A stretch of DNA of 64,000 nucleotides. Origin: Clostridium sp. Marseille-P2415. GTDB taxonomy: Bacteria; Bacillota; Clostridia; Lachnospirales; Lachnospiraceae. The notes beneath the pieces were generated by a model. The model was not told the DNA's origin and made no database searches. It worked only from the letters and a program-made list of their open reading frames with translations. Position numbers and translations under genes: made by a program. The first letter of the stretch is position 1. Every line of letters begins with the position of its first letter. Below, in pieces: positions 1 through 17,234 of this stretch. The stretch is from NCBI RefSeq assembly GCF_900155545.1, contig NZ_LT732526.1, positions 3,744,286 through 3,808,285 on the forward strand, written 5' to 3'.

Positions 1-389
1 TGCTGGCCTGGCTGGTATTTTATCAATGCGATCTGCTCTCCCTAAGTGACCGGACCGCAAGGGGACTGGGAGTAAATGTGACTGCGGTCAGGATCGGGGT
101 ATCCCTAATTGCAGTGGTCCTTGCCTCCATATCAACTGCAGAGGTGGGGGTAGTATCCTTTATCGGCCTGATCGTACCTCATATTGCCCGGATACTGATC
201 GGTTCCGGCCATAAGGCGCTGATCCCATTTTCCATGATCGGAGGAGCTTTTTTGATGCTCTTAGCGGATACCCTGGGGCGGACCATAGCGGCCCCTTATG
301 AAATTTCAGCTTCCATCCTGCTGTCCATTGTAGGCGGACCGATGCTGATCATCCTGCTTCGAAGGAGTGAAAAGACTTATGGCGTATGA
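1..389 (+). CDS. FecCD-family iron/heme ABC transporter permease (C-terminal part, start outside window)
   Basis: The reading frame is open from base 3 and ends at the TGA at 387-389; the N-terminus lies upstream of the window. The visible part has the FecCD/BtuC permease signature, including the 'DRTARGLGVNV' stretch, the conserved 'IGLIVPHIAR' loop that contacts the ATPase, and the closing 'ISASILLSIVGGP' membrane helix. Members form the membrane channel that imports ferric siderophores, heme or cobalamin from a lipoprotein receptor. The ATPase gene overlaps its 3' end, so the two are translationally coupled. The substrate cannot be told from this part alone; the NEAT protein downstream points to heme or iron. 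Confidence 0.9.
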   Translation, partial: LAWLVFYQCDLLSLSDRTARGLGVNVTAVRIGVSLIAVVLASISTAEVGVVSFIGLIVPHIARILIGSGHKALIPFSMIGGAFLMLLADTLGRTIAAPYEISASILLSIVGGPMLIILLRRSEKTYGV

Positions 390-1269
390 GAATAACCGCC
401 GTACTCCCCGCATGAAGAATGTAAGGGGCCTTGAGCTGGTACGGACAGTGAGGCAAGAAAGGCATGAGGATGCCGGGAATGGAAACAGAATGCCGGAGGC
501 GGTCATGAAGACGGAAGGACTTACCTTTTCTTATGACGGAACCGCCAATGTGCTGGAAAATTTCAATCTGGGAATACAAAAGGGAAAGATAACGGTGCTC
601 ATGGGAGCAAACGGCTGCGGAAAAAGCACCCTGTTCAATCTGATGACAAGGAACCTGTATCCGGATGAAGGAACCGTCCTCTTAAGGGGCAGGAATGCCG
701 ATGATATGAATCGGAAGGAATTTGCCCGGAATGTGGCGATCGTCCATCAGAACAATACTGCTCCGCCGGACCTCACGGTAGAAACACTGATCGGCTATGG
801 CAGGACCCCCTATCTGGCACCCTTTCAGACGGCAGGGGATATGGAAGATAAGAAAGCGGTGGAATGGGCCATGGAAGTGACTCACGTTGATCCGATCCGG
901 AATAAATACGTGTCGGAGCTGTCCGGGGGACAGCGGCAGAGGGTATGGATCGCCATGAGCCTTGCACAGATGACGGATGTGCTGTTTTTGGATGAGCCGA
1001 CCACCTATCTGGATATCCGGTATCAGATCGAGATACTGAAGCTGGTGAGGCGTTTGAACCGGGAATACGGGATCACCATTGTCATGGTACTCCATGATAT
1101 CAACCAGGCCATGGAATACGGAGATGTGTTCATCGGTATGAAGGATGGCGAAATTGTAACGGAAGGCGATCCGAAAGAGGTGGTGGATGCGGAGGTGCTT
1201 TATAAGCTTTACGGCATCCGGCTTCCAGTGGCGGAGACAGAGGGGAGAAGGTACGTGCTGACCGTTTAG
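379..1269 (+). CDS. FecE/FepC-like iron-complex ABC transporter ATPase
   Basis: Cytoplasmic ATPase partner of the preceding FecCD permease. It shows Walker A 'GANGCGKST' (about residues 76-84), a Q-loop 'VHQNN', the ABC signature 'LSGGQRQRVWIAM', Walker B 'VLFLDEPT' and the H-loop 'VLHD', in the order usual for FecE/FhuC/BtuD proteins. I chose the ATG at 379 because the AAGGAG at 362-367 lies 11 bases before it; a GTG at 367 is in frame but sits on that ribosome site. It overlaps the permease by 11 bases. About 45 residues precede the first strand of the ABC domain, longer than usual, so an internal ATG near 490-505 is a possible alternative. Confidence 0.92.
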   Translation: MAYENNRRTPRMKNVRGLELVRTVRQERHEDAGNGNRMPEAVMKTEGLTFSYDGTANVLENFNLGIQKGKITVLMGANGCGKSTLFNLMTRNLYPDEGTVLLRGRNADDMNRKEFARNVAIVHQNNTAPPDLTVETLIGYGRTPYLAPFQTAGDMEDKKAVEWAMEVTHVDPIRNKYVSELSGGQRQRVWIAMSLAQMTDVLFLDEPTTYLDIRYQIEILKLVRRLNREYGITIVMVLHDINQAMEYGDVFIGMKDGEIVTEGDPKEVVDAEVLYKLYGIRLPVAETEGRRYVLTV

Positions 1270-1301: not shown

Positions 1302-1418
1302 CTGCAAAAAAGCAAGACTCTTAATTCTGTTGTATCGCACACAATATGCGGATTAAGGTAGATGGGATTTAAAAGTCCTGAAACAACAAAATACCTCATT
1401 TTGAAAGGAGAATCTTTT

Positions 1419-1835
1419 ATGAAAAAAATTGCAACAATGGCTGCTGCTATGGCAATGTCCGCAATGATGGCGATGTCCGCATTTGCGTCAAATTATTCGG
1501 GAACTTATTTCTATTTTGATGCCGGACAGACACAGAAGGCCCCGGCCCATGCACAGACTACGGTAACGGGAATAGAAACAGCGGATGGCGACGAAGCAGG
1601 AACTACAGATATCGTCATTTATGTGCAGGAAATTGAGCACAGCGGAGTGGTCGGAGAGATCCAGTCCATTACGATTGATGGACAAACCGTGTATTCCGAT
1701 GGCAGTTCGATTGCATTTTATGGTGTAGATAACGATTTGATCAACGCCAAAGGCTTAATAAATGCATCAGTTACAATAACCAATGACGGTCATCCGGTGG
1801 ATCTTTCAGATATCTATCTGGATGTAGAACAGTAA
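1419..1835 (+). CDS. Small secreted protein of unknown function in the iron/heme locus
   Basis: The gene encodes 138 residues. The ATG at 1419 follows GAAAGGAG (1403-1410) and opens a clear signal peptide: a lysine pair, an Ala/Met-rich core and a cleavage-like 'SAFA' before 'SNYSG' (about residue 25). The mature part of about 113 residues looks beta-rich, acidic and cysteine-free, with one candidate domain and no membrane anchor, so it is probably released or bound to another surface protein. An in-frame ATG at 1362 would hide the signal peptide and is rejected. It lies between the ABC importer and the giant NEAT protein, suggesting a role in substrate capture, but I do not recognise the family. 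Confidence 0.75.
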   Translation: MKKIATMAAAMAMSAMMAMSAFASNYSGTYFYFDAGQTQKAPAHAQTTVTGIETADGDEAGTTDIVIYVQEIEHSGVVGEIQSITIDGQTVYSDGSSIAFYGVDNDLINAKGLINASVTITNDGHPVDLSDIYLDVEQ

Positions 1836-1928: not shown

Positions 1929-4900
1929 ATGAAAAGCAAGTGCCTGATGAAGGGGAAAATAAAATCGGTCATATTTCTGTTTTTTTGTCTGTCTTTGGCG
2001 CTCTTTAACACATGGGTCATCAGGGCCTGGGCGGATTATGAGACAGGCGTAACCTATATCGTTCCCATAGAATTCTACCAATCCAATGAGTGGGATTCAA
2101 CTGTATTAAAGGGAGTGGCTTCCAATATGCGGGTCCAGATGCAGGATAATGCGCTTGTAAAAAAGACAGAAGACGGGAAATATGAGGTTACCGTTTTTTA
2201 CCATGGATCCAGTTTTGAAGATATGCTTCAGATCATGGATAATTCCAGACTGCCAGAACTGAAGGAATTATATAAGAGTCCTGACCGTGTTCCCATGGGA
2301 ACTTTTAATGCACCGGAGGAATACCGGAATCCGGAATATGTTGAAACACTGAAAAATACAGGGAAAATAGATCCGGAAATGGATCCGTATTATAGAAAAG
2401 ATATAACATTTGCTTTAGTTGATAAAAACATGGATATTGGAAAAATGGTTTTTACAATGGACCGTTTATCAGACGGGGTCTATGTGAAAAATTGTTATAC
2501 GCCTGGGAAGGCGAACTCGATCGGGACCCAATGTGTAAGATTTGTGGAGGAAAAAAAGGAAATCCCCCTGACTTATAACGAAGGAAGCTATCGTTTGGGA
2601 TATGGCTGGTATAATTATGGGGAAGTAAAGAGCACAGACTATTCCCGGAAATATACGGAACAGAGCGTTGCCATGTATGAGAAATTAAGTGATTTATTTG
2701 AAAAGACTGTTCCGGTTTCCGTTGAAGGGGATGGAAAGATCAAGGCGGAATTTAAAATAAAAGATTCCGGTGACATACATACGATAGAAATTGCCACAAA
2801 GAAAAACGTGGATTTCAATACATTGACATCAACTCAGAAAACTTCACTTCAACAGGAATTTGTTGCGGCTGAATATGAAACGGTTTGGAACAGTGATACG
2901 GGTGGGGAGACCATTGAATTAGACTTCAACGATATACTTGACGGTTATTATCTTCGCATTATGACAAATGAATTAGAAGCATATAATGCGGATAAAACAG
3001 AAACAAACCAAAAGGGCTGGTATGCCTGCTTAAAGCTGGAGTCTGCCCCGGGCGAGGAGACGGAGGATTTAATCCTAACAAGCGGGGCAGCCAGGCTGAA
3101 AGCCAGGAGCGATGCCGTTCCGGCTGACAGTGAATTTATCTTCAGACAGCTTTCCCCAGAGGAAACCCCGGAGAATGTGATCAAATATACCGTTGATGGC
3201 TTAAGGCGGTTCTCTAAGGATGAGGACTCCTGTCTGGTGTATGACGGTTCTCTGGAAAGCGGGGGGACCCGTGTAGAGAAATTGAACGGCAATGTGACCC
3301 TGGAGGTGGCTCTTCCCGAGGGGTTTCATATGGATACAACTGCAGTCGCAGCATTTACCAGTGACGGCAGAAGCTTACTAAACCAGATGAACCAGTACAT
3401 AGATAAGGAAACCCGAACCTTTCGGTATACCACGACTCAGAGTTCTGAGATCAATGCGACCTACGTATTTTTTGACCGGGGAAATGTTTTGGACCCCTTG
3501 GAAATGGAGCAGCTGGAGGAGGGCGTATATGAAGTAGACTTAACCATTGCCCATGCCACTTACCGGTTCCGTCCGTCTATGGCCAACAGTTCTATTATGG
3601 ATAACAAGGGCGTATTGGAGGTCAGGGCCGGAGAAGACGGGAAGAAAACCTATCAGCTTTACTACGGGATGGAGCCTGTTTATGTCGGCCCTATTATAGG
3701 CTACATGACAGGAGAGGCCTACTGTAAGGGAAGCAGCAGAACTGACATCACGCCTGTTACGGTCCTGGAATACTATGCAAAGGAAGACGGAAATCTGGAC
3801 TATGATGCCTGGGCCGAAGAATTCCATTTCCAATACTTAAAACGTCTGACCTTCCCGCTGGAATCCCCGCAGGAAGACGGCACATATTTGCTTCAATTTG
3901 CTGTTCCTGCCATGGATGCAGAGCTTGGAGACGGAAGCGGGATCCAGTATGCCGCCCTTCGTGTCCGGAATCCCCAAAAAACAGGGGAAAACCGGCTGGC
4001 AGGATATGAAAAATCGGTTTTACAGGCAGTGATCGACCGGGCCGGACGTTATCTGGAGACCCTGGAATCGGGCAGCGAAGCCTATAACACCTTAAAGGAA
4101 GCCATTGATGCAGCCCGGGAAAGCAATAACAGTCCGGATGAAGAAACCATTGTCAGCGAAACGGAAAAGCTGCAGGCGGCTTTAAAGGCTGTCGGCGGTG
4201 ATTCAGAAGGAGTTAAGCTGTCCGACGGAACCTATGAACTGCCATTTGAGATCCAAAATTCATCGCAATCGGGGCAGTCGGATTTTCAGAAGTATTTCGA
4301 TACTTCAAAAATGGAGCTTAAAATCCAGGATGGCCGGATGACCCTGACACTTAAGGGCGTAAAACAGGGAGAGGATTATGTGACCTCTTTTCAATATGAC
4401 AATGGGGGAGCCGAAGCAGAGGACGGAGTGATCATAAACGGAGAGGATGGGCTTCCGGTCTCCTATGCATTTACGAGAGCGTACACGGAAGACCCCATTG
4501 AGATCAAACTGAGATCCGTTACCCAAAATGCTTTTGATTATGTCTGTTACCTGACCATGGATATTTCCGGAGCAGCCAGAAAGAAAGCAACAGAGGAAGA
4601 AATAAATGCATTGAGCAATAAGGTCCTGGAGGCCCGGAAATTACTTGAAGAGGACTATACCCGGAATTCCTATGAGGCATTGAAGGGGGCAATTGAGAAG
4701 GCTGAAACCTACCTGACGGTGGAGGAACCTTCCTATGATATCATATCCGGACAGACAACTGCACTGGCCGGGGCCTTTCATGATCTGGTTTCTCTGGTGG
4801 ATTTAAAAGCCAAAATCAAAGAAGCTTCCGAATATAAGAGCAGTGGTTATACGGAAGAAAGCTATCAGGCCCTTGCATTGGAGCTGGCAAATGCCAGAAA

Positions 4901-7900
4901 TATCCTGGTAAAGGCAGATGCGTCCGGCGAAGAGGTGAGCGTCCGGACCAGCAGGCTGCAGGAAGCGATTCAGGATCTCGTTCCGGCAGGAGAAGAACCG
5001 GGGGAATCGGGTCTGAAGGATGGAACCTATGAGATTCCCATGGGCTTATACAATACAGGAACGGAAAATGTCCATATGGACAGTCCGTATTACCGGTCGG
5101 CAGAATTGACAGTCAGTGAAGCGGGAAGCCAGATGGGCGTGAAGCTGAACATGCAGGCCAACGGGGAAAGCTGGATAACGGTTCTGAAATACAGCACAGA
5201 CGGAGGGGAGACTAAGACCGAGGTTACGGATATGGAAAAGGATGAAGCAGGAAATATCACAGCCTTCCGTTTATCTCTGCCCTATACGGAGGAGAGGATC
5301 ACGCTGTATGCGAGAAGCACAGCAAAGCCTTATTATGATACAAAGTCTGATCTGGTACTGGATTTTGCCGGAGCGGTAAAAAAACAGGAACCAGAAGTAC
5401 CGGTGGCTGATAAATCAAAGCTGGAATCACTCCTGTCTGAAACAGAAAGCATTTCAAAGGATCCTTATACAACAGACAGTTATGAGAAGCTTGAGGAGGC
5501 ACGTTCCGGTGCCAATGTGGTAAATTCGGATCAGAATGCCACCCAGACAGAAGTTGATGATTGTGTCAAATCCCTTCAGGAAGCTTACGATGCTCTGGAA
5601 TCCAGGGGGGATCTTACTTATGTAAATGAAATTATCTCCAAAGCAGAGCTGGCAACAGGAGAAGACCAGGGGAAGTATACGGCCGAATCTGTGCAGGCAC
5701 TTAAGGAGGTTCTTGACCGTGTTAAGGAAAAACTGGAAGCAGACAGCCATAATATGAATCAGGAGCAGGTAGACCGGCAGAAAGAGCTTCTAGAAGATGC
5801 ATACGGCGCGCTGGAAGAAAGCAGGATTCCTGAATTAAAGGAAGAATTAAAGGAATTGATACTTTCCTGTGAGAATTATTTACAGGAAGATTATACGGAA
5901 GAGAGCTGGGCAGCCCTGGAAGCGGCCCTCAAGACAGCCCGGAATCTGGAGGAAGAAGAAAGTACGTCGGAAGAGGAGTGTCAGGATGCAATCGCCCGCC
6001 TGACCATGGCAATCCAGGCGCTTGAGGAGAAAGATGAAACAGAGGATCTGTCCGGAATTTTGTTGACACTGCAGGAGCTGGCGGACAAAATGACCGGGGA
6101 AGTGCAGGATTCGGCAGATGAGATGGAGCCCACCAGCTATGCAGCTTATATGGCATCTGTAAATATGGCGGACAGCAGCAATTCTTATGCTCTTACGAAA
6201 GATCAGATTCAGGCACAGATTGACTGGATGAACGCAGAGAGCCATGCTTTGGTCCGGAATAATGAGCTTGAGGAATCTTATAATGTGATGTTTTTTGATG
6301 AATTATTTGACGCTGAATTACCGGAAGAGGAATTGATCGAAGAAAAAGCGGTAAACGAGGAATTACAGGAGGAACAGAAAGCCGAAACAAAGGCTGTTGG
6401 GAACATAGAGGAAGAGCCGGAAGCGGAAACAGGGAAAGAGCCGATAGCGGAAACAGAGGAAGAGTCGGAAGCAGAAACAAAGGAAAGCACGGAGGCCGAA
6501 ACAGAGGAAAGCGCGGAAGCGGAAACAGAGGAAAGTACGGAACCGGTAACAGAGAAGGAGACGGAGTCCGATATGGAAGAGGAGAAAGAAAAAGATGGAA
6601 CTCCCCAGCTTTCCATATCCCGTTCTACGTTGTCCATGTTCCGTTTGGGTGAATCTGCATCCACACCAAGCAGTGCAAAGCAGGATAAGAAAAAGCAGGC
6701 AAGCGCTGCTTTGGCAGCAAGCAAAGCAGTCAGCACCCTTCCCCGGGATGGAACTTACTCCATTAATTATGCCTTGTGGAAATATGATTTAAATGCAGCC
6801 TCTATGGGAAATCCTTCCTTTATTAAACCAGGGACGCTCATTATCGATGATGGGAAGGCCTCCATCTATATGAAGATGCAGGGAATGAACTACAGCGGTC
6901 TTTATGGGCATCTTAAAAGCATTTATCTTATGAAAAACATAAAAGAAACCTCTGACGGCCTGGATTACACCACGCAGGCTCCGTCTTACATCAAATATTC
7001 ACAGGAATCGGATGATTATGGCCCGGCTGGAAGCTATCCGTCTGTGGCTGGCTTCCCTGTGACCCTGTACCAGGAATACACGCCTGTAGAGGTGGATGTA
7101 CCTGTTATGGGAGAGGTGGGAAGGACTCAGGTTGCCCGTCTGCGCCTCTATTGGGATAGTCTTACATATGTAAATTCCTCGACGGATTATGAGAATAGCC
7201 AGACAGAGGAACCGGGCGGGAAGGAGATTGATACCGAAGATTTGAAAAAGGCGGTCACCGAGTTTGAGACTATGACAAAAGACTCATCCAAATTCATAAG
7301 CAAGTCCTATTATGCGGTTCTTAAGAGCGTGGCAGCAGGAGAGACACTGCTGGATCAGCCCGGAGTTTCTCAGGAAATGGCAGATAATCGGGCGGCTGCG
7401 ATCCGGGCAGGCATGAATGCGCTGATCCCGGCGGCTGCCAGCGGGGAGAAGGCAGAACTAAAGACATTGATCGAAAAAGCTGAGGCAGAGTATAAAATAA
7501 GTGATTATACGGAAGCATCCTATAAGGTATTGACCGCTGCCATTATTACAGCCGAAAAAACGGTCAGCAGTACGGACGTAACTCCCGGAATGGTAAACAG
7601 AGATATGAAAATGGTAAATATGGCCATCAGACAGCTGGTCAAGGATACATCGGATGATGTGAAAAGATCAGAACTGGAGCAGTGGATCACCACGGCGAAA
7701 GAGTATATAAAGTCCGATGAGTATACCGCAGCCAGCAAGGCGGCGTTAGTGGAGGTTTTATATGATGCCATGATGGTCGCAGGAAAGGAAAAGGCCACCC
7801 AGAAGGAAGTGGATGACCAGACCTCTGCCATAAAAGCTGCGGTCAGCAGGCTGGAAGGGATCGTGGATAAAACAGAATTGTATGAACTTTTGGAAAAAAC

Positions 7901-9458
7901 AAAAAAATACAACAAGTCGGATTATACGGAAGCTTCTTATGATGAACTGGTAAACGCGGTTGCGGCAGGTACCTTTGTATATAAGGACCAGACAGCAACT
8001 GCATCAACAGTCAGGGAAGCGTCTAATGCAATCAAGCGTGCCATCAACGGGCTTTCGGCAGCGGATGGCGGCGGCCAGACCGGAGGACTGGAGACGGCGA
8101 ACCAGACTCTGCTTTCGTGGATCCAGATGGCCGGCAGCTACGGCTCCAACGGTTATACGGCATCCTCTTATCAGACACTGGCCGTGGCACTTTCCAGCGC
8201 AAGAGAAGTCTATGCAAGCAGCACGGCATCTGCAGCCGAAAGATTGGCAGCGGCCGGAATCCTGCAGACAGCCGTCAATAATCTGGTCACGGATTCCGAC
8301 AGCGGCAGCAGCGGAGGTTCCGGCAAGAGCGATGAGGATGACGGCTGCTATAAGGTAAATGTACGTCTCTGGCACGCAACCATGAACAAAGCATCCATGG
8401 GAGACAGTGCTGTGGAAAAAAAGGCATATGTCCAGATTGAAGACGGCGATGTGACCATGCGCCTTGTAACCAAAAAGATGACGGTCAGCGGTATCACCGC
8501 ACATCTCCATGATTTCTGGATTTACGACGGCGGGGATTATGAAACGGCAGACCTGGTATCTACGGAAAACAGCAAATGGATTTTTGAATTTAATCTGCCG
8601 AATGACAGCTCCCAGTATTATAAGTGCAAGGTGGACCCGCAGGTAGATGTTATGGGAGACGACCCGGTAAAGGCAAGGCTCAAGGTGGACTGGAGCTCCT
8701 TAAAGGAAGTGGATGAGGATGACTGGGATGAGCTGACCGGGGACGTTGACGACGATGATGATGATACCACAACTATCAGCTCCGGCAGCGGTTCGGCAGA
8801 GCTTATCAGCTCTGAGACCGGAATCCGGGTCAAGGGAAACGCAGGCGGTCCAGGGGTCACTGTGGAAGTGAGCAAAAAAGACAGCGGCGCAGACTATGAC
8901 AAGGCCATCAATGCGTTAAGCAGTACTGCCGGCCGGTTCGTTCTTTACGACATCAAGCTGAAATCAGGCACGGAGTATGTACAGCCCAGGGAATCCGTGA
9001 CCCTCCGCATTCCGGTTCCTGCCGGATATGATACCGGCAGGCTGGTCCTGTACCGGATCAATGATGACGGAGAAAGAGAGGAAATAAGCGGCAGGCTGAA
9101 CGGAAGCTATTTTGAAGCAAACGTAAACCATTTCAGCCTGTACGCACTGGCGGAAAGCAATCAGGCCCACGCTTTGGCAAAGACCGCCGATAGCTTGGAA
9201 AACAAAAAAACAATAACCTTATCAAAGGCAGGATCTACAGGCAAAACAGGCTCCGGGGCAGGTCCAAAGACCGGAAGAGATACGGAAACTGTGCAGGGAG
9301 GCACCGGTAAATCTTCGGAACAGATGGCAGCCGGACGTGTGATCCCCTACACCGGAGACAGGACTCCTGTTAAAGAACTGATGGGTGTGGGAACCCTGGC
9401 TTTGCTTCTGGGCTTTGGGATGGCATTTACCGGAAAGGATCCGGAAAAAAGGAAATAA
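1929..9458 (+). CDS. Giant NEAT-module / FIVAR-repeat cell-surface protein, probable heme or iron capture
   Basis: A 2509-residue surface protein. Residues 1-36 are a signal peptide. NEAT-like beta modules occur near residues 38-130 (weak), 530-682 (weak), 764-883, 1030-1149, 1606-1750 and 2137-2261; the last two carry the NEAT-like pattern 'DGTYSINY...' to 'VDVPVMG'. Between them lie about eleven FIVAR-type helical repeats ('YTEESYQALAL', 'YTTDSYEKLEEA'), and residues 1461-1558 are a Glu-rich tandem repeat. A C-terminal beta domain (2281-2411) is followed by an 'IPYTGD' sortase-like motif (2473), a hydrophobic helix and a KRK tail, suggesting wall attachment. NEAT domains bind heme or hemoproteins in Gram-positive bacteria; here the YxxxY heme tyrosines are not obvious, so heme binding is inferred. 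ATG 1929 follows AGAGGAGGAG. Confidence 0.85.
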   Translation: MKSKCLMKGKIKSVIFLFFCLSLALFNTWVIRAWADYETGVTYIVPIEFYQSNEWDSTVLKGVASNMRVQMQDNALVKKTEDGKYEVTVFYHGSSFEDMLQIMDNSRLPELKELYKSPDRVPMGTFNAPEEYRNPEYVETLKNTGKIDPEMDPYYRKDITFALVDKNMDIGKMVFTMDRLSDGVYVKNCYTPGKANSIGTQCVRFVEEKKEIPLTYNEGSYRLGYGWYNYGEVKSTDYSRKYTEQSVAMYEKLSDLFEKTVPVSVEGDGKIKAEFKIKDSGDIHTIEIATKKNVDFNTLTSTQKTSLQQEFVAAEYETVWNSDTGGETIELDFNDILDGYYLRIMTNELEAYNADKTETNQKGWYACLKLESAPGEETEDLILTSGAARLKARSDAVPADSEFIFRQLSPEETPENVIKYTVDGLRRFSKDEDSCLVYDGSLESGGTRVEKLNGNVTLEVALPEGFHMDTTAVAAFTSDGRSLLNQMNQYIDKETRTFRYTTTQSSEINATYVFFDRGNVLDPLEMEQLEEGVYEVDLTIAHATYRFRPSMANSSIMDNKGVLEVRAGEDGKKTYQLYYGMEPVYVGPIIGYMTGEAYCKGSSRTDITPVTVLEYYAKEDGNLDYDAWAEEFHFQYLKRLTFPLESPQEDGTYLLQFAVPAMDAELGDGSGIQYAALRVRNPQKTGENRLAGYEKSVLQAVIDRAGRYLETLESGSEAYNTLKEAIDAARESNNSPDEETIVSETEKLQAALKAVGGDSEGVKLSDGTYELPFEIQNSSQSGQSDFQKYFDTSKMELKIQDGRMTLTLKGVKQGEDYVTSFQYDNGGAEAEDGVIINGEDGLPVSYAFTRAYTEDPIEIKLRSVTQNAFDYVCYLTMDISGAARKKATEEEINALSNKVLEARKLLEEDYTRNSYEALKGAIEKAETYLTVEEPSYDIISGQTTALAGAFHDLVSLVDLKAKIKEASEYKSSGYTEESYQALALELANARNILVKADASGEEVSVRTSRLQEAIQDLVPAGEEPGESGLKDGTYEIPMGLYNTGTENVHMDSPYYRSAELTVSEAGSQMGVKLNMQANGESWITVLKYSTDGGETKTEVTDMEKDEAGNITAFRLSLPYTEERITLYARSTAKPYYDTKSDLVLDFAGAVKKQEPEVPVADKSKLESLLSETESISKDPYTTDSYEKLEEARSGANVVNSDQNATQTEVDDCVKSLQEAYDALESRGDLTYVNEIISKAELATGEDQGKYTAESVQALKEVLDRVKEKLEADSHNMNQEQVDRQKELLEDAYGALEESRIPELKEELKELILSCENYLQEDYTEESWAALEAALKTARNLEEEESTSEEECQDAIARLTMAIQALEEKDETEDLSGILLTLQELADKMTGEVQDSADEMEPTSYAAYMASVNMADSSNSYALTKDQIQAQIDWMNAESHALVRNNELEESYNVMFFDELFDAELPEEELIEEKAVNEELQEEQKAETKAVGNIEEEPEAETGKEPIAETEEESEAETKESTEAETEESAEAETEESTEPVTEKETESDMEEEKEKDGTPQLSISRSTLSMFRLGESASTPSSAKQDKKKQASAALAASKAVSTLPRDGTYSINYALWKYDLNAASMGNPSFIKPGTLIIDDGKASIYMKMQGMNYSGLYGHLKSIYLMKNIKETSDGLDYTTQAPSYIKYSQESDDYGPAGSYPSVAGFPVTLYQEYTPVEVDVPVMGEVGRTQVARLRLYWDSLTYVNSSTDYENSQTEEPGGKEIDTEDLKKAVTEFETMTKDSSKFISKSYYAVLKSVAAGETLLDQPGVSQEMADNRAAAIRAGMNALIPAAASGEKAELKTLIEKAEAEYKISDYTEASYKVLTAAIITAEKTVSSTDVTPGMVNRDMKMVNMAIRQLVKDTSDDVKRSELEQWITTAKEYIKSDEYTAASKAALVEVLYDAMMVAGKEKATQKEVDDQTSAIKAAVSRLEGIVDKTELYELLEKTKKYNKSDYTEASYDELVNAVAAGTFVYKDQTATASTVREASNAIKRAINGLSAADGGGQTGGLETANQTLLSWIQMAGSYGSNGYTASSYQTLAVALSSAREVYASSTASAAERLAAAGILQTAVNNLVTDSDSGSSGGSGKSDEDDGCYKVNVRLWHATMNKASMGDSAVEKKAYVQIEDGDVTMRLVTKKMTVSGITAHLHDFWIYDGGDYETADLVSTENSKWIFEFNLPNDSSQYYKCKVDPQVDVMGDDPVKARLKVDWSSLKEVDEDDWDELTGDVDDDDDDTTTISSGSGSAELISSETGIRVKGNAGGPGVTVEVSKKDSGADYDKAINALSSTAGRFVLYDIKLKSGTEYVQPRESVTLRIPVPAGYDTGRLVLYRINDDGEREEISGRLNGSYFEANVNHFSLYALAESNQAHALAKTADSLENKKTITLSKAGSTGKTGSGAGPKTGRDTETVQGGTGKSSEQMAAGRVIPYTGDRTPVKELMGVGTLALLLGFGMAFTGKDPEKRK

Positions 9459-9514: not shown

Positions 9515-9925
9515 TTGAAAAAACTAATGAATACTGCTTGTGTGGCAATGGGATTTGTGTGCATAGGAGTCGGCTGCATAGGGATCGTGCTTCCCATTCT
9601 TCCGACCACTCCGTTTCTGCTTCTGGCGCTGGTACTGTTTGCCAAAGGTTCTGTCCGGTTCCACAGATGGTTTCTGTCTACAAAACTGTATAAAAAGTAT
9701 CTGGAAGATTTTGTTGTAACAAAGTCCATGACAAAAGGGATGAAAATCAGAGTCCTTGTTATTGTGACCTTGCTCCTTGCTGCCGGATTTTGGTTTTCCC
9801 CGGTTTTTGCAAAGGTCATCATTGTTATTGTAGCAGCGTTTCATTACGTATATTTCATCTTTGGCATAAAAACCACAGAGGAGAAAAAGATGATTCCGGG
9901 AGAAGGAAAAAGGGGAGTGTCATGA
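9515..9925 (+). CDS. DUF454 (YbaN-like) small membrane protein
   Basis: The 136-residue protein has the DUF454/YbaN pattern: an N-terminal helix, the motif 'GIVLPILPTTPFLLLAL', an amphipathic 'CF/FAKGSVRFHRW' segment and two closely spaced C-terminal membrane helices. The start is TTG at 9515, preceded by AGGAAAGGGG at 9496-9505. Its function is not established; YbaN homologues are often found next to heme or respiratory transport genes. Its stop overlaps the ATG of the CydD-like gene (ATGA at 9922), so the two are co-translated and probably work together. Confidence 0.85.
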   Translation: MKKLMNTACVAMGFVCIGVGCIGIVLPILPTTPFLLLALVLFAKGSVRFHRWFLSTKLYKKYLEDFVVTKSMTKGMKIRVLVIVTLLLAAGFWFSPVFAKVIIVIVAAFHYVYFIFGIKTTEEKKMIPGEGKRGVS

Positions 9926-11754
9926 TTAAAAAAAACCTGATCTGCCTTATGTCGGATTCCAAAAAGTATATTGTCCATAATGTCCTGTGGCAGTGGCTGG
10001 CCCTTTGGGCCTCGATTGCCGTCATGACGGCAGCGGGACGGCTTTTTGAGAAGGGTTACGGGGGACAGCTGACAGAAGGAAGCGTGGCGGTATCCGCAGG
10101 GGTGATCCTGCTGGCGGTCCTCGGGCGCATGGTCTGCAGCCGGAGGGCGGCCCTGGCTTCTGATCTGGCGGGAAGTGACATAAAACGGGAATTAAGAAAG
10201 CGGCTGTATGAAAAACTGATGGTTTTGGGAGCTGCTTATCACGAAAAGGTCCCTACGGCCGAGGCCGTACAGGTGGCAGTGGAGGGAGTGGAGCAGCTGG
10301 AAGTCTATTTTGGCAGGTATCTTCCCCAGCTTTTTTACAGTCTACTGGCCCCTCTCACGTTGTTTTTTGTCCTGTCTTTTATTAGCTTTAAAGCCAGTTT
10401 GGTTCTGCTCCTCTGTGTTCCGTTAATCCCTCTGACGATCATAGCAGTGCAAAAGGCTGCAAAGAAGCTGCTGAACAAATACTGGGGAATTTACACAGAA
10501 CTGGGAGACAGTTTTCTGGAGAATCTACAGGGGCTTACCACGCTTAAGATTTATCAGGCAGACGGGGATAAGGCAGCGAAGATGGATGAAGAGGCGGAGC
10601 ATTTCCGGAAAATCACCATGAAGGTCCTGATGATGCAGCTTAATTCCATTATTGTCATGGATGTGGTGGCCTACGGCGGGGCGGCCATCGGCATGATAGT
10701 CACGGTCCGGGAATATCTGGCAGGAAGTCTGGGGCTGGGAGGTGCTATGACCATTATTCTGCTGTCTTCCGAATTTTTTATCCCGATGCGCCTTCTGGGG
10801 TCATTTTTCCATATTGCCATGAACGGCATAGCTGCATCGGACAAGCTCTTTGGGATATTGGACATACCGGTTGAAAAAAGAGGGGAAAAGGAGCTGGAAA
10901 ACGGGCCGGTGGAAATCACCATGCGTTCTGTAGAATTTTCCTATGTACCGGAACGAAAGGTTTTAGATAAGGTGTCCCTGAAGCTTCCGGAGCAGGGCAT
11001 GGTATCTCTGGCGGGGCTTTCCGGCTGCGGAAAAAGCACCGTCGCTTCTCTGCTGACAGGCAAGAACAGGAATTACCGGGGAGAGATCCGGTTAAATGGC
11101 CTGGAGCTGTCAGATATCTCAGAAGAAAGCCTCATGTCCCATGTGACGCTGGTCAGCCATAACAGCTATATTTTTAAGGGAACTGTGGAGGACAATTTAA
11201 GGATGGCGGCACCGGAGGCGGGAAAAGAAGAGATGGAGGAGGTTTTAAAGGAAGTGAAGCTTTATGATTTTCTGATGGAGCAGAAGGGCCTTAAGACAGA
11301 GCTTGGGGAACGGGGCTCCAACTTATCAGGAGGCCAGAGCCAGAGACTTGCCCTGGCCAGGGCGCTGCTTCACGATACGCCGGTATACATATTTGATGAA
11401 GCCACCTCAAACATAGACGCAGAAAGCGAAAACCAGATCATGGCGGTAATCAAAAAGCTGGCCGGCCGGCGGAATGTTCTGCTGATTTCCCACCGCCTTG
11501 CAAATGTGGTTGATTCCGGCAGGATATATGTTTTAGAGGAAGGCAGGATTGCGGAAGAGGGGAATCATGAGGAGCTGCTTAAGAGAAACGGTGTATATGC
11601 AGGACTCTATCTGGGGCAGAAAGCGCTGGAGGAGTATGCTTCGGGAACTGATCTGGAGCAGGAGAAGCCGGATTGCTTGACCGACGGACGAAAGGGCAGG
11701 GAACGGAAAATAACACGGAAACCTGCGGAAAAAGGGGGAGTGCGGTATGCATAG
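9922..11754 (+). CDS. CydD-like ABC exporter, fused membrane and ATPase domains
   Basis: A 610-residue half-transporter: six membrane helices (residues about 20-330), then an ATPase domain with Walker A 'GLSGCGKST', signature 'NLSGGQSQRLALARAL' and Walker B 'VYIFDEAT'. The membrane part resembles CydD, including 'YFGRYLPQL' and the 'EFFIPMRLLGSFFH' helix. CydDC was described as a cysteine/glutathione exporter needed for cytochrome bd assembly and, from later structural work, as a heme transporter. The start is the ATG at 9922 that overlaps the DUF454 stop; an upstream in-frame ATG at 9790 only reads through that gene. It overlaps the next gene by 8 bases. No cytochrome bd gene is in the window, so I avoid a firm cydD symbol. 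Confidence 0.85.
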   Translation: MIKKNLICLMSDSKKYIVHNVLWQWLALWASIAVMTAAGRLFEKGYGGQLTEGSVAVSAGVILLAVLGRMVCSRRAALASDLAGSDIKRELRKRLYEKLMVLGAAYHEKVPTAEAVQVAVEGVEQLEVYFGRYLPQLFYSLLAPLTLFFVLSFISFKASLVLLLCVPLIPLTIIAVQKAAKKLLNKYWGIYTELGDSFLENLQGLTTLKIYQADGDKAAKMDEEAEHFRKITMKVLMMQLNSIIVMDVVAYGGAAIGMIVTVREYLAGSLGLGGAMTIILLSSEFFIPMRLLGSFFHIAMNGIAASDKLFGILDIPVEKRGEKELENGPVEITMRSVEFSYVPERKVLDKVSLKLPEQGMVSLAGLSGCGKSTVASLLTGKNRNYRGEIRLNGLELSDISEESLMSHVTLVSHNSYIFKGTVEDNLRMAAPEAGKEEMEEVLKEVKLYDFLMEQKGLKTELGERGSNLSGGQSQRLALARALLHDTPVYIFDEATSNIDAESENQIMAVIKKLAGRRNVLLISHRLANVVDSGRIYVLEEGRIAEEGNHEELLKRNGVYAGLYLGQKALEEYASGTDLEQEKPDCLTDGRKGRERKITRKPAEKGGVRYA

Positions 11755-13420
11755 CCGAAGATCAGGGATCCGGATTATGGCGCAGTTAATGAGGCTGGTA
11801 AAGCCGCTTCTGCTGATCGTTGGGCTGGCGGTCACCCTGGGAGTCCTGGGATATTTATGTGCCATCTTCCTGACCATATCGGCCGTTGCCGGAATCCTTA
11901 CAGTTCTTGGATTTTCTCCGCCTCCCGTATTTCCGGGTTCCTTAAAGCAGATCTTTATGATGATGGCAGTTCTGGCAGTACTCAGGGGCGCGTTCCACTA
12001 TGGGGAGCAGGAGTGCAACCATTATATTGCATTCAAACTGCTGGCGGTCCTTCGCCACCGGGTCTTTGAGGCTCTGCGCAGACTTTGCCCTGCAAAGCTG
12101 GAAGGGCGGGACAGGGGAAATTTGATTTCCATTATTACCAGTGATATAGAGCTTTTAGAGGTGTTCTACGCCCATACCATTTCCCCGGTCTGCATTGCAT
12201 TTGTTACCAGCCTTATTATGGTGATTTTTATGGGCAGCTTCCATCCTGTCTGCGGCCTGGCGGCATTGGCGGGCTATGTAACGGTTGGGGTGATCCTTCC
12301 TGTCTGGAATTCCCGGAAAGGGGCAAAGACCGGTATGGAGTATCGGGATCAGTTCGGAAGGATGAACAGCTTTATTCTGGACAGCCTCCGGGGACTGGGG
12401 GAAACCATACAGTACGGCCAGGGAAGCAGACGCCTGTCTCAGCTTAAAGAGGGATCGTACCATCTGTCTGAGCGTCAAAAGCGGTTAAAGGAACTGGAAG
12501 GCAGCTCCGGGGCAGTTACAGGAGCCTGCATTACCCTGTTTTCCTTTTTTATGCTGTTTTTGACCCTGTGGCTGTATGAGAACAATGTCCTGGAGTTTGA
12601 CGGCGCGGTGCTGGTGACCGTTGCCATGATGGGATCCTTCGGACCGGTAACAGCTCTATCCAGCTTATCCAACAATTTAAACCAGACTTTGGCCTGCGGG
12701 GAGCGGGTCTTATCCGTTTTGGAGGAGGAGCCTCAGGTAAAGGAGGTATACGGGAAGGCGGAAAGCACATTTTCCGGGGCAGCCTTTGTAGATGTGACCT
12801 TTGCTTACGGGGCTGAAACGGTTTTAAAGGGGATTTCCATGGAGCTCCCTGAGAACCAGATCATCGGAATCCACGGAAAAAGCGGTTCCGGGAAATCCAC
12901 GCTGTTAAAGCTTTTGATGAGATTCTGGGATGTACAGAAAGGAGCTGTTCTCGTCTCCGGACGGGATGTGCGGAACATCAACACCGTTGATTTAAGAAAA
13001 ATGGAAAGCTTTGTGACCCAGGATACGGTATTGTTTCACGATACCATTGCAAATAATATCGCAGTTGGAAAACCCGGGGCTTCCAGGGAGGAAATCATGG
13101 AAGCGGCAAAGAAAGCCTCCATCCATGATTTCATAGAGGCTTTGCCCGGCGGGTATGATACCGAAGTGGGAGAGCTGGGAGACCGCTTATCCGGAGGGGA
13201 ACGCCAGAGGATCGGGCTTGCAAGAGCGTTCCTTCACGATTCCCCCCTGCTTTTGTTAGATGAGCCTACCAGCAATCTGGACAGTCTCAATGAGGGAATT
13301 ATTTTAAAATCCTTAAAGGAAGAAAGGAAAGACCGGACAGTGGTTTTGGTATCCCACAGGAGGTCCACAATGAGTATCGCAGAAAAGGTCTGGAAAATGA
13401 CTGGGGACCGGGGATCCTGA
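11747..13420 (+). CDS. CydC-like ABC exporter, partner of the preceding gene
   Basis: A 557-residue half-transporter whose membrane part has the CydC landmarks: 'RGAFHYGEQECNHYIAFKLLA', 'LRHRVFEALRRLCPA' and 'GNLISIITSDIELLE'. The ATPase domain shows Walker A 'GKSGSGKST', signature 'LSGGERQRIGLARAF' and Walker B 'LLLLDEPTSNLD'. It starts at ATG 11747, overlapping the upstream gene by 8 bases, so the two probably assemble as a CydDC-like heterodimer. Placement directly downstream of a NEAT receptor and a FecCD importer makes heme, or a thiol that keeps heme reduced, a reasonable substrate; this is inference from context. Confidence 0.85.
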   Translation: MHSRRSGIRIMAQLMRLVKPLLLIVGLAVTLGVLGYLCAIFLTISAVAGILTVLGFSPPPVFPGSLKQIFMMMAVLAVLRGAFHYGEQECNHYIAFKLLAVLRHRVFEALRRLCPAKLEGRDRGNLISIITSDIELLEVFYAHTISPVCIAFVTSLIMVIFMGSFHPVCGLAALAGYVTVGVILPVWNSRKGAKTGMEYRDQFGRMNSFILDSLRGLGETIQYGQGSRRLSQLKEGSYHLSERQKRLKELEGSSGAVTGACITLFSFFMLFLTLWLYENNVLEFDGAVLVTVAMMGSFGPVTALSSLSNNLNQTLACGERVLSVLEEEPQVKEVYGKAESTFSGAAFVDVTFAYGAETVLKGISMELPENQIIGIHGKSGSGKSTLLKLLMRFWDVQKGAVLVSGRDVRNINTVDLRKMESFVTQDTVLFHDTIANNIAVGKPGASREEIMEAAKKASIHDFIEALPGGYDTEVGELGDRLSGGERQRIGLARAFLHDSPLLLLDEPTSNLDSLNEGIILKSLKEERKDRTVVLVSHRRSTMSIAEKVWKMTGDRGS

Positions 13421-13504: not shown

Positions 13505-13563
13505 TTGACTTGTGAGGATTGCAGTAGTAGTATAAAAACAGCAAAAAGTTAGCACAAACTAAC
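13505..13563 (+). promoter_or_regulatory. Promoter with a downstream GTTAG-N6-CTAAC operator-like repeat
   Basis: TTGACT (13505-13510), a 17-base spacer and TAGTAT (13528-13533) form a good vegetative promoter for the methyltransferase gene, with a start near 13540. An inverted repeat GTTAG-N6-CTAAC (13548-13563) lies at about +9 to +24, and a third GGTTAG occurs at 13574-13579. This is where a repressor could bind. No matching regulator is encoded next to it. Confidence 0.5.
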
Positions 13564-14533: not shown

Positions 14534-15721
14534 CTATTCACAAAGCGCCTTTGCTATCTCTGCAGCCTTATTAAAATCTTCCTCTTCCGGATTCCACAAG
14601 CACTTAGCTTCCTCCTCAATCACTGCAAATCCTGCATCGGTCAGCCTTTCCCGAAGAACCTTTGTACCCTCTCCGCTCCATCCATAGCAACCGAATACGG
14701 CAGCCCTCTTGCCCTTAAATCTCAGTTCCTTTAAGAAATCAAGCCATCCCCCTACGGAAGAAAGCACGCTTCCTCCAACGGTCGGAGAGCCTAAAGCAAT
14801 CGCCTTGGATTTAAACACCTCCGTCATGATGTCATTCTTATTTGTTTTAGAAATATTATAGATCATCACTCTTGTATCTGGTGAAATCTGTGCGATTTCG
14901 GCACTGATCTTGTGAGCAAGTTGTTTTGTCCCCTCCCACATGGTATCATAAACAATGGTGATCTGATCTTCCTGATAGTTCTGTGACCATTCATAATATT
15001 TTTCCACAATCTGCAGGGGATTATCTCTCCAGATTGAGCCGTGGCTGGTAGCGATGATGTCAATGGGCAGGTTCAGTCCTTTTATTTCCTCAATTTTCTT
15101 TTTAACAAGAGTTGAAAACGGAGTTAATATATTGGCATAATACTTCAAAGCCTCTTCCCAGAGCCGGCACTGGTCGGCTTTATCATTGAATAATTCTTCC
15201 ACAGCAAAATGCTGTCCAAAAGCATCATTGGAAAAGAGTATGTTATCTCCCGTCATATAAGTAGCCATGCTGTCCGGCCAGTGAAGCATTTTCATCTCAA
15301 CAAAGATAAGCTTCTTGCCATTTCCGATATCAATGGAATCCCCTGTTTTCACAACTTTATAATTCCACTCCGGGTGATGATATTGTCCGGTAAGTGATTT
15401 TACTCCGTTTGCCGTACAATAGATAGGAGCATCGGGTATTTTTTCCATCAGTTCCGGAAGAGAACCGCTATGGTCGATCTCCCCATGATTTGCAACAATA
15501 AAATCAATCTCTTTTAAGTCGATTTCTTTTTCCAGATTGTCTATAAACTCTGTGGAATGCGGCTTCCAGACGGTATCGATCAGGACAGTCTTTTCTTCTT
15601 TAATTAAATAAGCGTTCTGGCTCGAACCGTGATTAATGGAATAGTCTGCCCCATGGAAGGATTCCAGTTCCCAATCCATAATTCCAACCCAGTAAACATT
15701 ATTTTTCACAAGTTTCTTCAT
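14534..15721 (-). CDS. fprA: Flavodiiron protein (O2/NO reductase)
   Basis: A 395-residue type A flavodiiron protein. An N-terminal metallo-beta-lactamase domain (1-245) holds the diiron ligands H79-x-E81-x-D83-H84 in 'NHGEIDHSG', with further ligands in 'LHWPDS' and 'SNDAFGQHF'. A C-terminal flavodoxin domain (from about 255) begins 'ITIVYDTMWEGT'. The protein reduces O2 to water and/or NO to N2O in the cytoplasm of anaerobes, with electrons usually delivered by rubredoxin. There is no fused rubredoxin domain. It starts 2 bases after the ric stop, so both lie in one operon behind the Fnr-type promoter at 16.48-16.53 kb. Confidence 0.93.
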   Translation of the reverse strand: MKKLVKNNVYWVGIMDWELESFHGADYSINHGSSQNAYLIKEEKTVLIDTVWKPHSTEFIDNLEKEIDLKEIDFIVANHGEIDHSGSLPELMEKIPDAPIYCTANGVKSLTGQYHHPEWNYKVVKTGDSIDIGNGKKLIFVEMKMLHWPDSMATYMTGDNILFSNDAFGQHFAVEELFNDKADQCRLWEEALKYYANILTPFSTLVKKKIEEIKGLNLPIDIIATSHGSIWRDNPLQIVEKYYEWSQNYQEDQITIVYDTMWEGTKQLAHKISAEIAQISPDTRVMIYNISKTNKNDIMTEVFKSKAIALGSPTVGGSVLSSVGGWLDFLKELRFKGKRAAVFGCYGWSGEGTKVLRERLTDAGFAVIEEEAKCLWNPEEEDFNKAAEIAKALCE

Positions 15722-15723
15722 AA

Positions 15724-16422
15724 TTATATTCCTCCTTCATATTTTTGAAATAGCAATGAGTTTTCTGTAAATATGTGAATATAAATGTCCTTGATCAATT
15801 CCTGAAGCTTTTGAAAGACCAGATGGTAAGAGGCACAGCCGTCCTCCGGCACTGTAAAATCATTGGTGCGGAACGCGATTTCTTTTATCAGATTTCCGGC
15901 CGCTTCATGTTCATCTTCCAGCTCTTTCACATATCCGCCGTCACTTTTCCCGGAGAAACTTTTTTTCATATAGGGGAAAATCAGTTTTTCTTCCTTGGCA
16001 AAATGCTCCTGAAGTTCTTTTCTCAGATCCGAAAAAAGTCCATGGAGGGGAACCAGCTGCTTATGATGGTGCTCATAATGAGCAAGCAGGACTTTATTGA
16101 TCAATTCATCGATTTCCGTAAGAAGTATTCTCTCTTTTGCATGATGAGTAGCAATGATATAATCAATAAGGTCAGGAACCGCCATCTCTGTTAACCGTTC
16201 TATGGCCAGTACCTGTCCGCTGTCTGGTTCGTGAACTGCTTTCACAAGCTTTTTATTTAACAGTTCGATAAAGCTTTTTGAGTCAATACCAAGTTCTCGT
16301 ACCGCGTCTTCTAAAATATCTTTTCCGCCGCAGCAATAATCAATGTGAAAATCATTAAAAATATCAACTGCTCTTGGATATGCCTTAATCACATCGGTTA
16401 TCTTCATTTTATTTGTAATCAT
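15724..16422 (-). CDS. ric: RIC iron-sulfur cluster repair diiron protein (ScdA/YtfE family)
   Basis: A 232-residue RIC protein. The N-terminal domain (about 1-65) contains the signature 'FNDFHIDYCCGG'. The hemerythrin-like four-helix domain carries the histidine ligands in 'YIIATHHAKE', 'HYEHHHKQL', 'LQEHFAKEE' and 'LEDEHEAAG'. RIC proteins repair Fe-S clusters damaged by NO or oxidants. Pairing with flavodiiron fprA directly downstream gives a simple NO/O2 defence operon. Expression is probably under the Crp/Fnr-type site just upstream. Confidence 0.93.
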   Translation of the reverse strand: MITNKMKITDVIKAYPRAVDIFNDFHIDYCCGGKDILEDAVRELGIDSKSFIELLNKKLVKAVHEPDSGQVLAIERLTEMAVPDLIDYIIATHHAKERILLTEIDELINKVLLAHYEHHHKQLVPLHGLFSDLRKELQEHFAKEEKLIFPYMKKSFSGKSDGGYVKELEDEHEAAGNLIKEIAFRTNDFTVPEDGCASYHLVFQKLQELIKDIYIHIFTENSLLFQKYEGGI

Positions 16423-16478
16423 ATTTGACCTCCCTTTCTCTGAGCTCTTCGTTTTTTCGAAACCAGATGTTCTTTTTG

Positions 16479-16526
16479 TAAGGCTAGTATAACCAGGAAA
16501 GAGAAAGAAAAATGTGATTTAAATCA
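16479..16526 (-). promoter_or_regulatory. ric-fprA promoter with Fnr/Crp-type palindrome centred at -41.5
   Basis: On the minus strand TATACT lies at 16491-16486, predicting a start near 16479. The perfect palindrome TGATTTAAATCA (16515-16526) is centred between 16520 and 16521, exactly -41.5 from that start. This is the position of a class II Crp/Fnr activator site, and there is no good -35 box, as expected for an activated promoter. The half-site TGATT matches Fnr-type targets. The candidate activator is the Crp/Fnr gene directly upstream. The start site is predicted, not mapped. Confidence 0.7.
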
Positions 16527-16544
16527 TTATTTGAATGTTTTTTA

Positions 16545-17234
16545 TTAATTTCCGTTTTCAAAAACATCTCTTAAAATATCTTTGTTCCGGATGAGGACCT
16601 TTCGGTTCCCCTCCAGTCCAATGGCCCCCTCCATGCGAAGCTCCCCCAGCTTTCTGCTGATGGTCTCCCTTCTGACGTTTATATATGCAGATATATCATC
16701 TCTGGTCAATTCAATGGTTTTACTTTTAATTCTATTGCTTCTAAATAAAAGAAAACCGGCGACCCTTGCTTTGGCATCGTTTACGGATAATAATTGCACC
16801 AGCTCATTGGCTAATGACAGTTTCTGCCCTACTACGTTTAATATTTTAATTCCTATTTCAGGCCTTTTTAAAATCAGATTCTGGATGTCTGCCAAAGAAA
16901 TCAGACATACCCCGCTTTCCTCCAAGGCAATGGCATTTGCTTCAAACGCTTTTCCTCCGAATATATTCTGCTCTCCATAGATTTCGCCTTCTCCCAGTAT
17001 ATCGAGAACATACTCTTTTCCTTCAAAGGAATAGTGGTTAATCTTTATTTTTCCATAGCGGATAACCAGTATTTTATCCGCCGGGTCATACTCATGAAAA
17101 ACTGTTTCTCCTTTTTTGTAATCCAGATGCTGCGTTTTTGATATCAGTTCCTTTTGTTCTTCTAAAGAGAGAGACTGAAAAAGGGGGATTTTGGAAGTAC
17201 ATAATTTGCTGCAGCAATTGCATTGATGTTCCAT
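16545..17234 (-). CDS. Crp/Fnr-family regulator with N-terminal cysteine cluster
   Basis: A 229-residue Crp/Fnr regulator. Residues 5-12 form a C-x-C-C-x3-C cluster, suited to an Fe-S or metal sensor. A cyclic-nucleotide-binding fold (about 18-110) contains 'GEGEIYGEQNIFGG', followed by a long dimer helix and a C-terminal winged helix with 'ISAYINVRRETISRKLGEL' as recognition region. Fnr-type proteins sense O2 or NO through Fe-S clusters; the sensed signal here is inferred from the cysteines and from the neighbouring ric and fprA. It starts 21 bases after the araC-like gene, so these may be co-transcribed, and it ends just before the palindrome that it probably binds. Confidence 0.85.
   Translation of the reverse strand: MEHQCNCCSKLCTSKIPLFQSLSLEEQKELISKTQHLDYKKGETVFHEYDPADKILVIRYGKIKINHYSFEGKEYVLDILGEGEIYGEQNIFGGKAFEANAIALEESGVCLISLADIQNLILKRPEIGIKILNVVGQKLSLANELVQLLSVNDAKARVAGFLLFRSNRIKSKTIELTRDDISAYINVRRETISRKLGELRMEGAIGLEGNRKVLIRNKDILRDVFENGN

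What the first reader, a model, noticed from the sequence alone, without database searches (positions are those of the whole stretch)
1929..9458. 2509-residue surface protein combining several NEAT-like modules with about eleven FIVAR repeats and a wall-anchor-like tail
Seen: NEAT-like modules alternate with three-helix FIVAR-type repeats, a Glu-rich repeat at 6310-6600 and an IPYTGD end. Known: NEAT domains bind heme or hemoproteins, and FIVAR repeats act as spacers or ligand-binding rods. Inference: a long heme or hemoprotein capture fibre feeding the ABC importer next to it. The usual YxxxY heme motif is not clear, so the ligand may be new.
Basis: partly seen in the sequence, partly recalled or inferred. 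Interest (0 to 1): 0.7.

Follow-up and report, generated by a model that had tools for sequence, protein, structure and literature searches.

The report
Wall-anchored heme-capture protein, methionine type
This is a very long cell-wall protein that most likely grabs heme (the iron pigment of blood) with paired methionines and passes it to an importer next door; the same gene cluster also holds an unusual gene switch that appears to carry the same kind of heme-binding domain inside the cell.

Summary
The 2509-aa ORF at 1929-9458 has four Pfam-supported NEAT domains, a fifth by predicted fold (aa 527-684), a possible sixth (aa 39-215), 10-12 FIVAR repeats, a Glu-rich stretch and an IPYTGD wall-anchor tail. 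YxxxY is indeed missing. Instead, three NEATs at fixed positions carry the methionine pair (SM ... PxM/VxVM) that binds heme in Streptococcus pyogenes Shr; the best PDB sequence match is Shr NEAT2. The other two NEATs lack both motifs; their number varies between homologs. Around it lie class B sortase, Shp, an IsdE-type heme lipoprotein, FecCD permease and ATPase, then DUF454 and a CydDC-like pair, much as in the streptococcal sia operon. Best reading: a Shr-like methionine heme receptor on a FIVAR rod, feeding Shp and the importer. It works like Shr but is not a Shr (no HID or LRR found). Just upstream lies the most surprising part: a regulator, cytoplasmic by its sequence, whose predicted fold is a DtxR/MntR half plus a NEAT with the same methionine pair. 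In 18 of 20 sampled genomes its gene sits beside heme-import genes and/or CydDC-like genes. My searches found no report of such a fusion. Heme binding itself was not measured.

The parts
1929..9458 (+). 2509-aa secreted, wall-anchored NEAT/FIVAR protein
2043..2573 (+). aa 39-215: possible NEAT/Shp-like module with a large insert
3507..3980 (+). aa 527-684: NEAT with methionine pair (M551, M662)
4221..4562 (+). aa 765-878: NEAT without SM or PxM
5016..5366 (+). aa 1030-1146: NEAT without SM or PxM
6747..7154 (+). aa 1607-1742: NEAT with methionine pair (M1626, M1727); best match Shr NEAT2
8337..8693 (+). aa 2137-2255: NEAT with methionine pair (M2157, M2242); most conserved module looked at
4023..4181 (+). 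FIVAR-like repeat, weak (aa 699-751)
   Evidence: three-helix fold (658-721 of the model)
4608..4970 (+). FIVAR repeats aa 894-1014 (2)
5421..6236 (+). FIVAR repeats aa 1165-1436 (3 plus 1 weak partial)
7239..8276 (+). FIVAR repeats aa 1771-2116 (5)
6310..6600 (+). Glu-rich stretch
   Evidence: sequence
9342..9455 (+). IPYTGD sorting signal, hydrophobic stretch, basic tail (aa 2472-2509)
   Evidence: sequence; IPYTGD present in 7 of 7 homologs P0003-P0009
78..389 (+). 3' part of the FecCD permease gene that starts before the window (L006:15331)
367..1269 (+). ABC ATPase of the importer
   Evidence: PF00005 E 1.9e-33
1362..1835 (+). 157-aa secreted protein of no Pfam or NCBIfam family; homologs begin at the Met at 1419
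9515..9925 (+). DUF454 protein
   Evidence: NF007818 E 3.8e-22, below its cut-off
9790..13420 (+). CydD-like and CydC-like ABC halves (9790-11754, 11747-13420)
   Evidence: best NCBIfam models CydD 393.2 bits (cut-off 435) and CydC 317.8 (329.05)
13548..13563 (.). GTTAG-N6-CTAAC palindrome, 32 bases before the LCM-type methyltransferase gene at 13596

Best explanation
The protein is a secreted, sortase-anchored heme receptor. Three NEAT domains at fixed places hold heme iron between two methionines, as Shr and Shp of S. pyogenes do. Two further NEATs without these ligands, and perhaps the N-terminal module, more likely touch the hemoprotein or act as spacers. FIVAR repeats and the Glu-rich stretch form the rod that carries them out from the wall. 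Heme would pass from the NEAT nearest the wall to membrane-bound Shp, then to the IsdE-type lipoprotein and in through FecCD/ATPase. Shown here: domains, methionine positions, neighbours, conserved gene order. Inferred: heme binding, direction of transfer, hemoprotein contact, which of the genome's three sortases anchors it. In the same cluster a DtxR-NEAT fusion protein most likely senses cytoplasmic heme and controls the heme genes (inferred).
For: NEAT and FIVAR over Pfam cut-offs. Best PDB sequence match Shr NEAT2, E 0.004, with SM and PxM aligned; these are heme ligands in the crystal structure. In 43 modules of 8 proteins, 23 sit at three fixed places: second Met in 23 of 23, first in 19 of 23. 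Neighbours Shp, IsdE-type lipoprotein, class B sortase, FecCD, ATPase. CydD/CydC genes follow in 5 of 5 named loci. IPYTGD tail in 7 of 7 homologs.
Against: No binding data. PDB sequence match is weak (E 0.004; IsdX1, a Tyr-type NEAT, is close behind at 0.006). First Met is Leu in 4 of 23 modules (P0008, P0009). Two of five NEATs have no recognised ligand. Structures of the two C-terminal methionine NEATs were not predicted. No HID hemoglobin-binding domain. CydD/CydC and DUF454 are below the model cut-offs. Only 1 of 25 genomes of its genus has a NEAT match.
Confidence: 0.8

Rival explanations
1. Mainly an adhesin or hemoprotein-binding rod: FIVARs and methionine-free NEATs bind a host or food protein, and heme uptake is secondary or absent.
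For: 20 of 43 NEATs in the family have neither motif; FIVARs occur in many other surface proteins of other function.
Against: Gene order with Shp, IsdE-type lipoprotein and importer; methionines kept at fixed positions.
Confidence: 0.1
2. The ligand is another tetrapyrrole or iron compound (for example a chlorophyll product, a cobalt porphyrin or a siderophore) rather than heme.
For: FecCD-type importers also carry siderophores and cobalamin (general knowledge); the ligand was not tested; the 2014 NEAT survey raises chlorophyll for some clostridia (PMC4143258 section 8 part 1).
Against: Lipoprotein over the cut-off for IsdE heme lipoprotein; Shp family partner; methionine pair as in heme-bound Shr.
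Confidence: 0.07
3. A decaying or chance repeat protein without present function.
For: Rare in its genus (1 of 25 genomes); two homologous records are split into several frames (L061, L063).
Against: Intact 2509-aa frame; last NEAT 68-87% identical between homologs; methionines kept.
Confidence: 0.03

Closest known systems
Shr of Streptococcus pyogenes (with Shp and HtsABC/SiaABC)
   Same: Methionine-pair NEATs (best PDB match is Shr NEAT2); neighbouring Shp, heme lipoprotein, importer, then ABC genes like siaD/siaE
   Different: FIVAR rod, five or six NEATs, wall-anchor tail; no HID or LRR found. Shr's domain list apart from NEAT1, NEAT2 and linker is partly recalled
Clostridial Group NEAT proteins (2014 survey, PMC4143258)
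   Same: No YxxxY; conserved Met in the beta7-beta8 loop was predicted near heme
   Different: That survey favoured a conserved Phe as axial ligand; here two methionines align with crystallographic Shr ligands. Whether its proteins include this family was not checked
Isd proteins (IsdA/B/H/C)
   Same: NEAT fold, wall anchoring, lipoprotein of IsdE type, class B sortase in the cluster
   Different: Tyr (YxxxY) ligands there; IsdC model reaches 57.9 of 155.85 bits here
DtxR/MntR family regulators incl. MtsR; heme sensors HrtR, PefR, HatR, HsmR (for the regulator upstream)

Membership tests
NEAT domain (PF05031), surface protein | Pfam score over cut-off | tested here: met
   97 bits vs 32.8; 4 stretches, 3 of 4 over cut-off singly
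NEAT domain (PF05031), surface protein | YxxxY heme motif (Isd type) | tested here: not met
   0 of 5 modules of this protein; 3 of 43 in the family have some YxxxY in the last 45 residues
FIVAR (PF07554) | Pfam score over cut-off | tested here: met
   74 bits vs 29.2, 7 stretches
Shr | methionine-pair NEATs | tested here: met
   sequence motifs at three modules; coordination itself not tested
Shr | HID (DUF1533) domains and leucine-rich repeats (recalled) | tested here: not met
   no such family in the Pfam scan up to E 1
Shr | co-encoded Shp and heme ABC importer | tested here: met
Sortase-anchored wall protein | LPxTG-like motif, hydrophobic stretch, basic tail | tested here: met
   IPYTGD at aa 2472, by reading; anchoring itself not tested
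Regulator: NEAT domain | Pfam cut-off | tested here: not met
   22.8 vs 32.8 bits for this member; 8 of 15 homologs carry a precomputed PF05031
Regulator: NEAT domain | NEAT fold | tested here: met
Regulator: DtxR/MntR family | winged helix plus dimerisation helices | tested here: met
Regulator: heme sensor | heme binding changes DNA binding | not testable with these tools
   inferred from methionine pair and gene linkage only

The most novel reading that the evidence does not exclude
The cluster encodes a NEAT domain working inside the cell: a DtxR/MntR-type regulator whose sensor half is a methionine-pair NEAT, so one heme-binding fold captures heme at the wall and also reports it to the promoter. 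The family, spread over several families of the class, would control heme import and a CydDC-like transporter. The surface protein is the receptor of the same methionine relay, with fixed heme-holding NEATs and a variable array of ligand-free NEATs for hemoprotein contact.
Probability: 0.65. Interest if true: 0.78.

Novelty: new variant of a known kind. Interest (0 to 1): 0.66.

Why it matters
It carries the methionine-type Shr/Shp heme relay, which a 2025 structural paper presents as a streptococcal trait not shared by NEATs of other Gram-positive species (abstract), into Clostridia, and gives NEATs without YxxxY, an open question in the 2014 survey, a testable ligand pair. The regulator beside it would be, as far as my searches show, the first described transcription factor with a NEAT domain: a candidate heme sensor linked to heme import.

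Tried and rejected
YxxxY: present elsewhere in the protein (aa 221, 238, 575, 1610, 1655) but not at the C-terminal heme site of its modules. In the family 3 of 43 modules show some YxxxY in the last 45 residues (P0004 twice, P0006 once); not followed.

Rows dropped before the count of 43 modules: P0002 (99% copy), and weak profile matches with E over 0.2 (two in P0001, one each in P0005, P0006, P0007). The N-terminal methionine modules kept are themselves weak by sequence (E 2e-4 to 0.2).

Small secreted gene 1362-1835 as a NEAT: profile comparison gave 0.6% probability with 3 sequences and 17-19% with 9; not claimed.

A genome-contig scan with the regulator alignment confirmed none of 64 pattern matches, so no named organism was found for it there; the genome search did find it. 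In one search, 4 of 10 matching genomes (G519, G600, G787, G804) match only the DNA-binding half at E 1e-4 to 6e-4 and were dropped; G191 (E 5.9e-4, DNA-binding half) was dropped too. Linkage fails in 2 of 20 genomes (G086, G291); in G291 the gene is interrupted by two stops and only its pieces were used. Five other matches are flagged with one stop (G063, G069, G311, G387, G397); my ORF calls give frames of 196-305 aa there, so I take these to be the genes' own ends. In alignment A1, 3 of 15 homologs (P0118, P0128, P0129) lack the HMP end, being truncated or altered. No background rate for CydDC neighbours was measured.

The search for the palindrome with up to 2 mismatches is no richer than its control (6 vs 5 places); only the exact GTTAG-N6-CTAAC pattern is (16 vs 1), and 5 of its 16 places were looked at.

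aa 216-525: no clear match in the fold search, but this part is barely tested. The top Foldseek row 3ecq_B (rmsd 20) says nothing about NEAT.

Horizontal-transfer hint: the cluster has slightly more G+C (0.48-0.51) than its surroundings (0.44-0.45); not pursued.

Literature searches. Seen: PMC12796733 abstract, start of the introduction, section 3 part 1 of 3, sections 6 and 9; PMC4143258 passages and section 8 part 1 of 2; PMC6593403, PMC4837585, PMC12670364, PMC7136413 passages; CydDC papers (PMC10374445 and others) only in the listing. No supplementary file was read. No listed paper describes a NEAT-containing transcription factor, but I did not read whole texts.

Full report

HOMOLOGS. Of 113 proteins returned (only the 7985 candidates sharing most words were scored), eight (P0002-P0009) carry both NEAT and FIVAR labels. 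P0002 is a 99% copy and was left out of counts; P0008 and P0009 are nearly the same, so the independent sample is small. The others carry no NEAT label. NCBI already names some of the eight 'NEAT domain-containing protein', so the architecture as such is in databases; the 2014 NEAT survey lists FIVAR among extra features of NEAT proteins (legend seen). Among 25 genomes of its own genus only this one has a NEAT match (3 of 61 in the whole sample).

THE HEME SITE. What replaces it shows in the best PDB sequence match, Shr NEAT2 of S. pyogenes (9w5y, aa 1606-1746, E 0.004), where SM and PxM of both proteins align. IsdX1, a tyrosine-type NEAT, is close behind (E 0.006), so the score alone does not decide. 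In the Shr crystal structures Met997/Met1107 (NEAT2) and Met390/Met475 (NEAT1) hold the heme iron, and loss of both in NEAT1 abolishes heme binding. I then looked at 43 NEAT modules in this protein and seven homologs. They fall in two classes. 23 sit at three fixed places (N-terminal, penultimate, last; the N-terminal one is missing from the shorter P0004 record): the second methionine is in 23 of 23 (22 by script, P0006's VPYM by reading the sequence it printed), the first in 19 of 23 (Leu at two modules each of P0008 and P0009). The other 20 have neither motif and vary from 1 to 5 per protein. So the methionine NEATs are the constant part and the ligand-free NEATs the variable part. The division of labour, heme holding versus protein contact or spacing, is inference.

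THE NEIGHBOURS. Upstream on the same strand lie, in order: the regulator (below), a class B sortase (TIGR03064, over cut-off), Shp (PF11545, E 8.2e-40; 2q7a E 8.1e-14, with GQGM and MGR aligned, which I recall as the two heme methionines), a lipoprotein over the IsdE cut-off, FecCD permease, ATPase and a 157-aa secreted protein. Downstream: a DUF454 protein, CydD-like and CydC-like ABC halves (best models, all below cut-off) and an LCM-type methyltransferase. In 5 of 5 named loci found with the last NEAT, CydD and CydC genes follow the NEAT gene; FecCD, ATPase and the small secreted gene precede it in the 2 loci that reach that far. A GAS gene list has shp/siaA, siaB and siaC followed by ABC genes siaD and siaE (PMC6593403 passage). 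CydDC has been reported as a heme transporter (PMC10374445 and others, listing only). The genome has three sortases, so which one anchors the protein is open. In other loci the receptor slot holds shorter NEAT proteins: of 8 scanned, 6 are over the NEAT cut-off, 3 have an FMN-binding domain, 1 an fn3, and none shows HID.

IRON BOX. Between regulator and srtB lies the palindrome GTTAGTTATAACTAAC (L006:12410, 40 bases before srtB). GTTAG-N6-CTAAC occurs 16 times in the genome against 1 for the reversed control, though the looser search around the palindrome is no richer than its control (6 vs 5). I looked at 5 of the 16: before srtB; two in an operon that reads as Crp-like regulator, lipoprotein, FecCD and ATPase (L073:3146, 3909); one before a 184-aa gene (L075:3130); one 32 bases before the methyltransferase at window 13596. 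A one-mismatch copy stands before another FecCD-like operon (L074:3365) (gene names there by reading). This looks like an iron-regulator box, so the importer operon may answer to iron as well as to the NEAT regulator. A second motif, GTATGCACACAATG, occurs exactly twice in the genome, both in the same gap (L006:12136, 12247), and is a candidate site for the regulator.

VERDICT. The surface protein is a new variant of a known kind: it works like Shr, is built on a FIVAR rod and anchored like Isd proteins, and fails the Shr membership test (no HID or LRR found). The DtxR-NEAT fusion next to it is the more novel element.

Noticed in passing
L006:11253-12104 (about 3.9 kb before the window; own genome contig C9): 283-aa regulator with a DtxR/MntR-like half and a NEAT half carrying the SM/HMP methionine pair; 17 of 397 family genomes match.
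   Followed up: yes
window 1362-1835; L060:2254-2682; L061:2277-2756: Small secreted protein of no known family. Of 9 aligned members (a 95% copy left out), 7 have both histidines (P-x-HAQ and GH) and 2 have neither, never one alone, as if the two worked as a pair; relation to NEAT not shown.
   Followed up: partly
L040:10859-11332 (-), L042:14934-15464 (-): At a similar place in two other genomes sits a small secreted protein made of one NEAT with SMG and PMG motifs, a possible free heme carrier.
   Followed up: partly
L006:12410, window 13548, L073:3146 and 3909, L075:3130: Palindrome GTTAG-N6-CTAAC, 16 in the genome vs 1 in the control, several before iron-transport-like genes: likely iron-regulator box.
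   Followed up: partly
L006:12136 and 12247: Direct repeat with core GTATGCACACAATG, the only two exact copies in the genome, between the regulator and srtB.
   Followed up: partly
L041:9933-11717 (-), L058:10504-13254 (-), L071:6064-9291 (-): NEAT proteins in the same slot with an FMN-binding domain, in two of the three over or near the NEAT cut-off: possible surface heme reduction.
   Followed up: no
window 14534-17234 (-): Genes that read like a flavodiiron-type protein, a hemerythrin-like RIC/ScdA protein and a Crp/Fnr regulator (names by reading, no family search).
   Followed up: no
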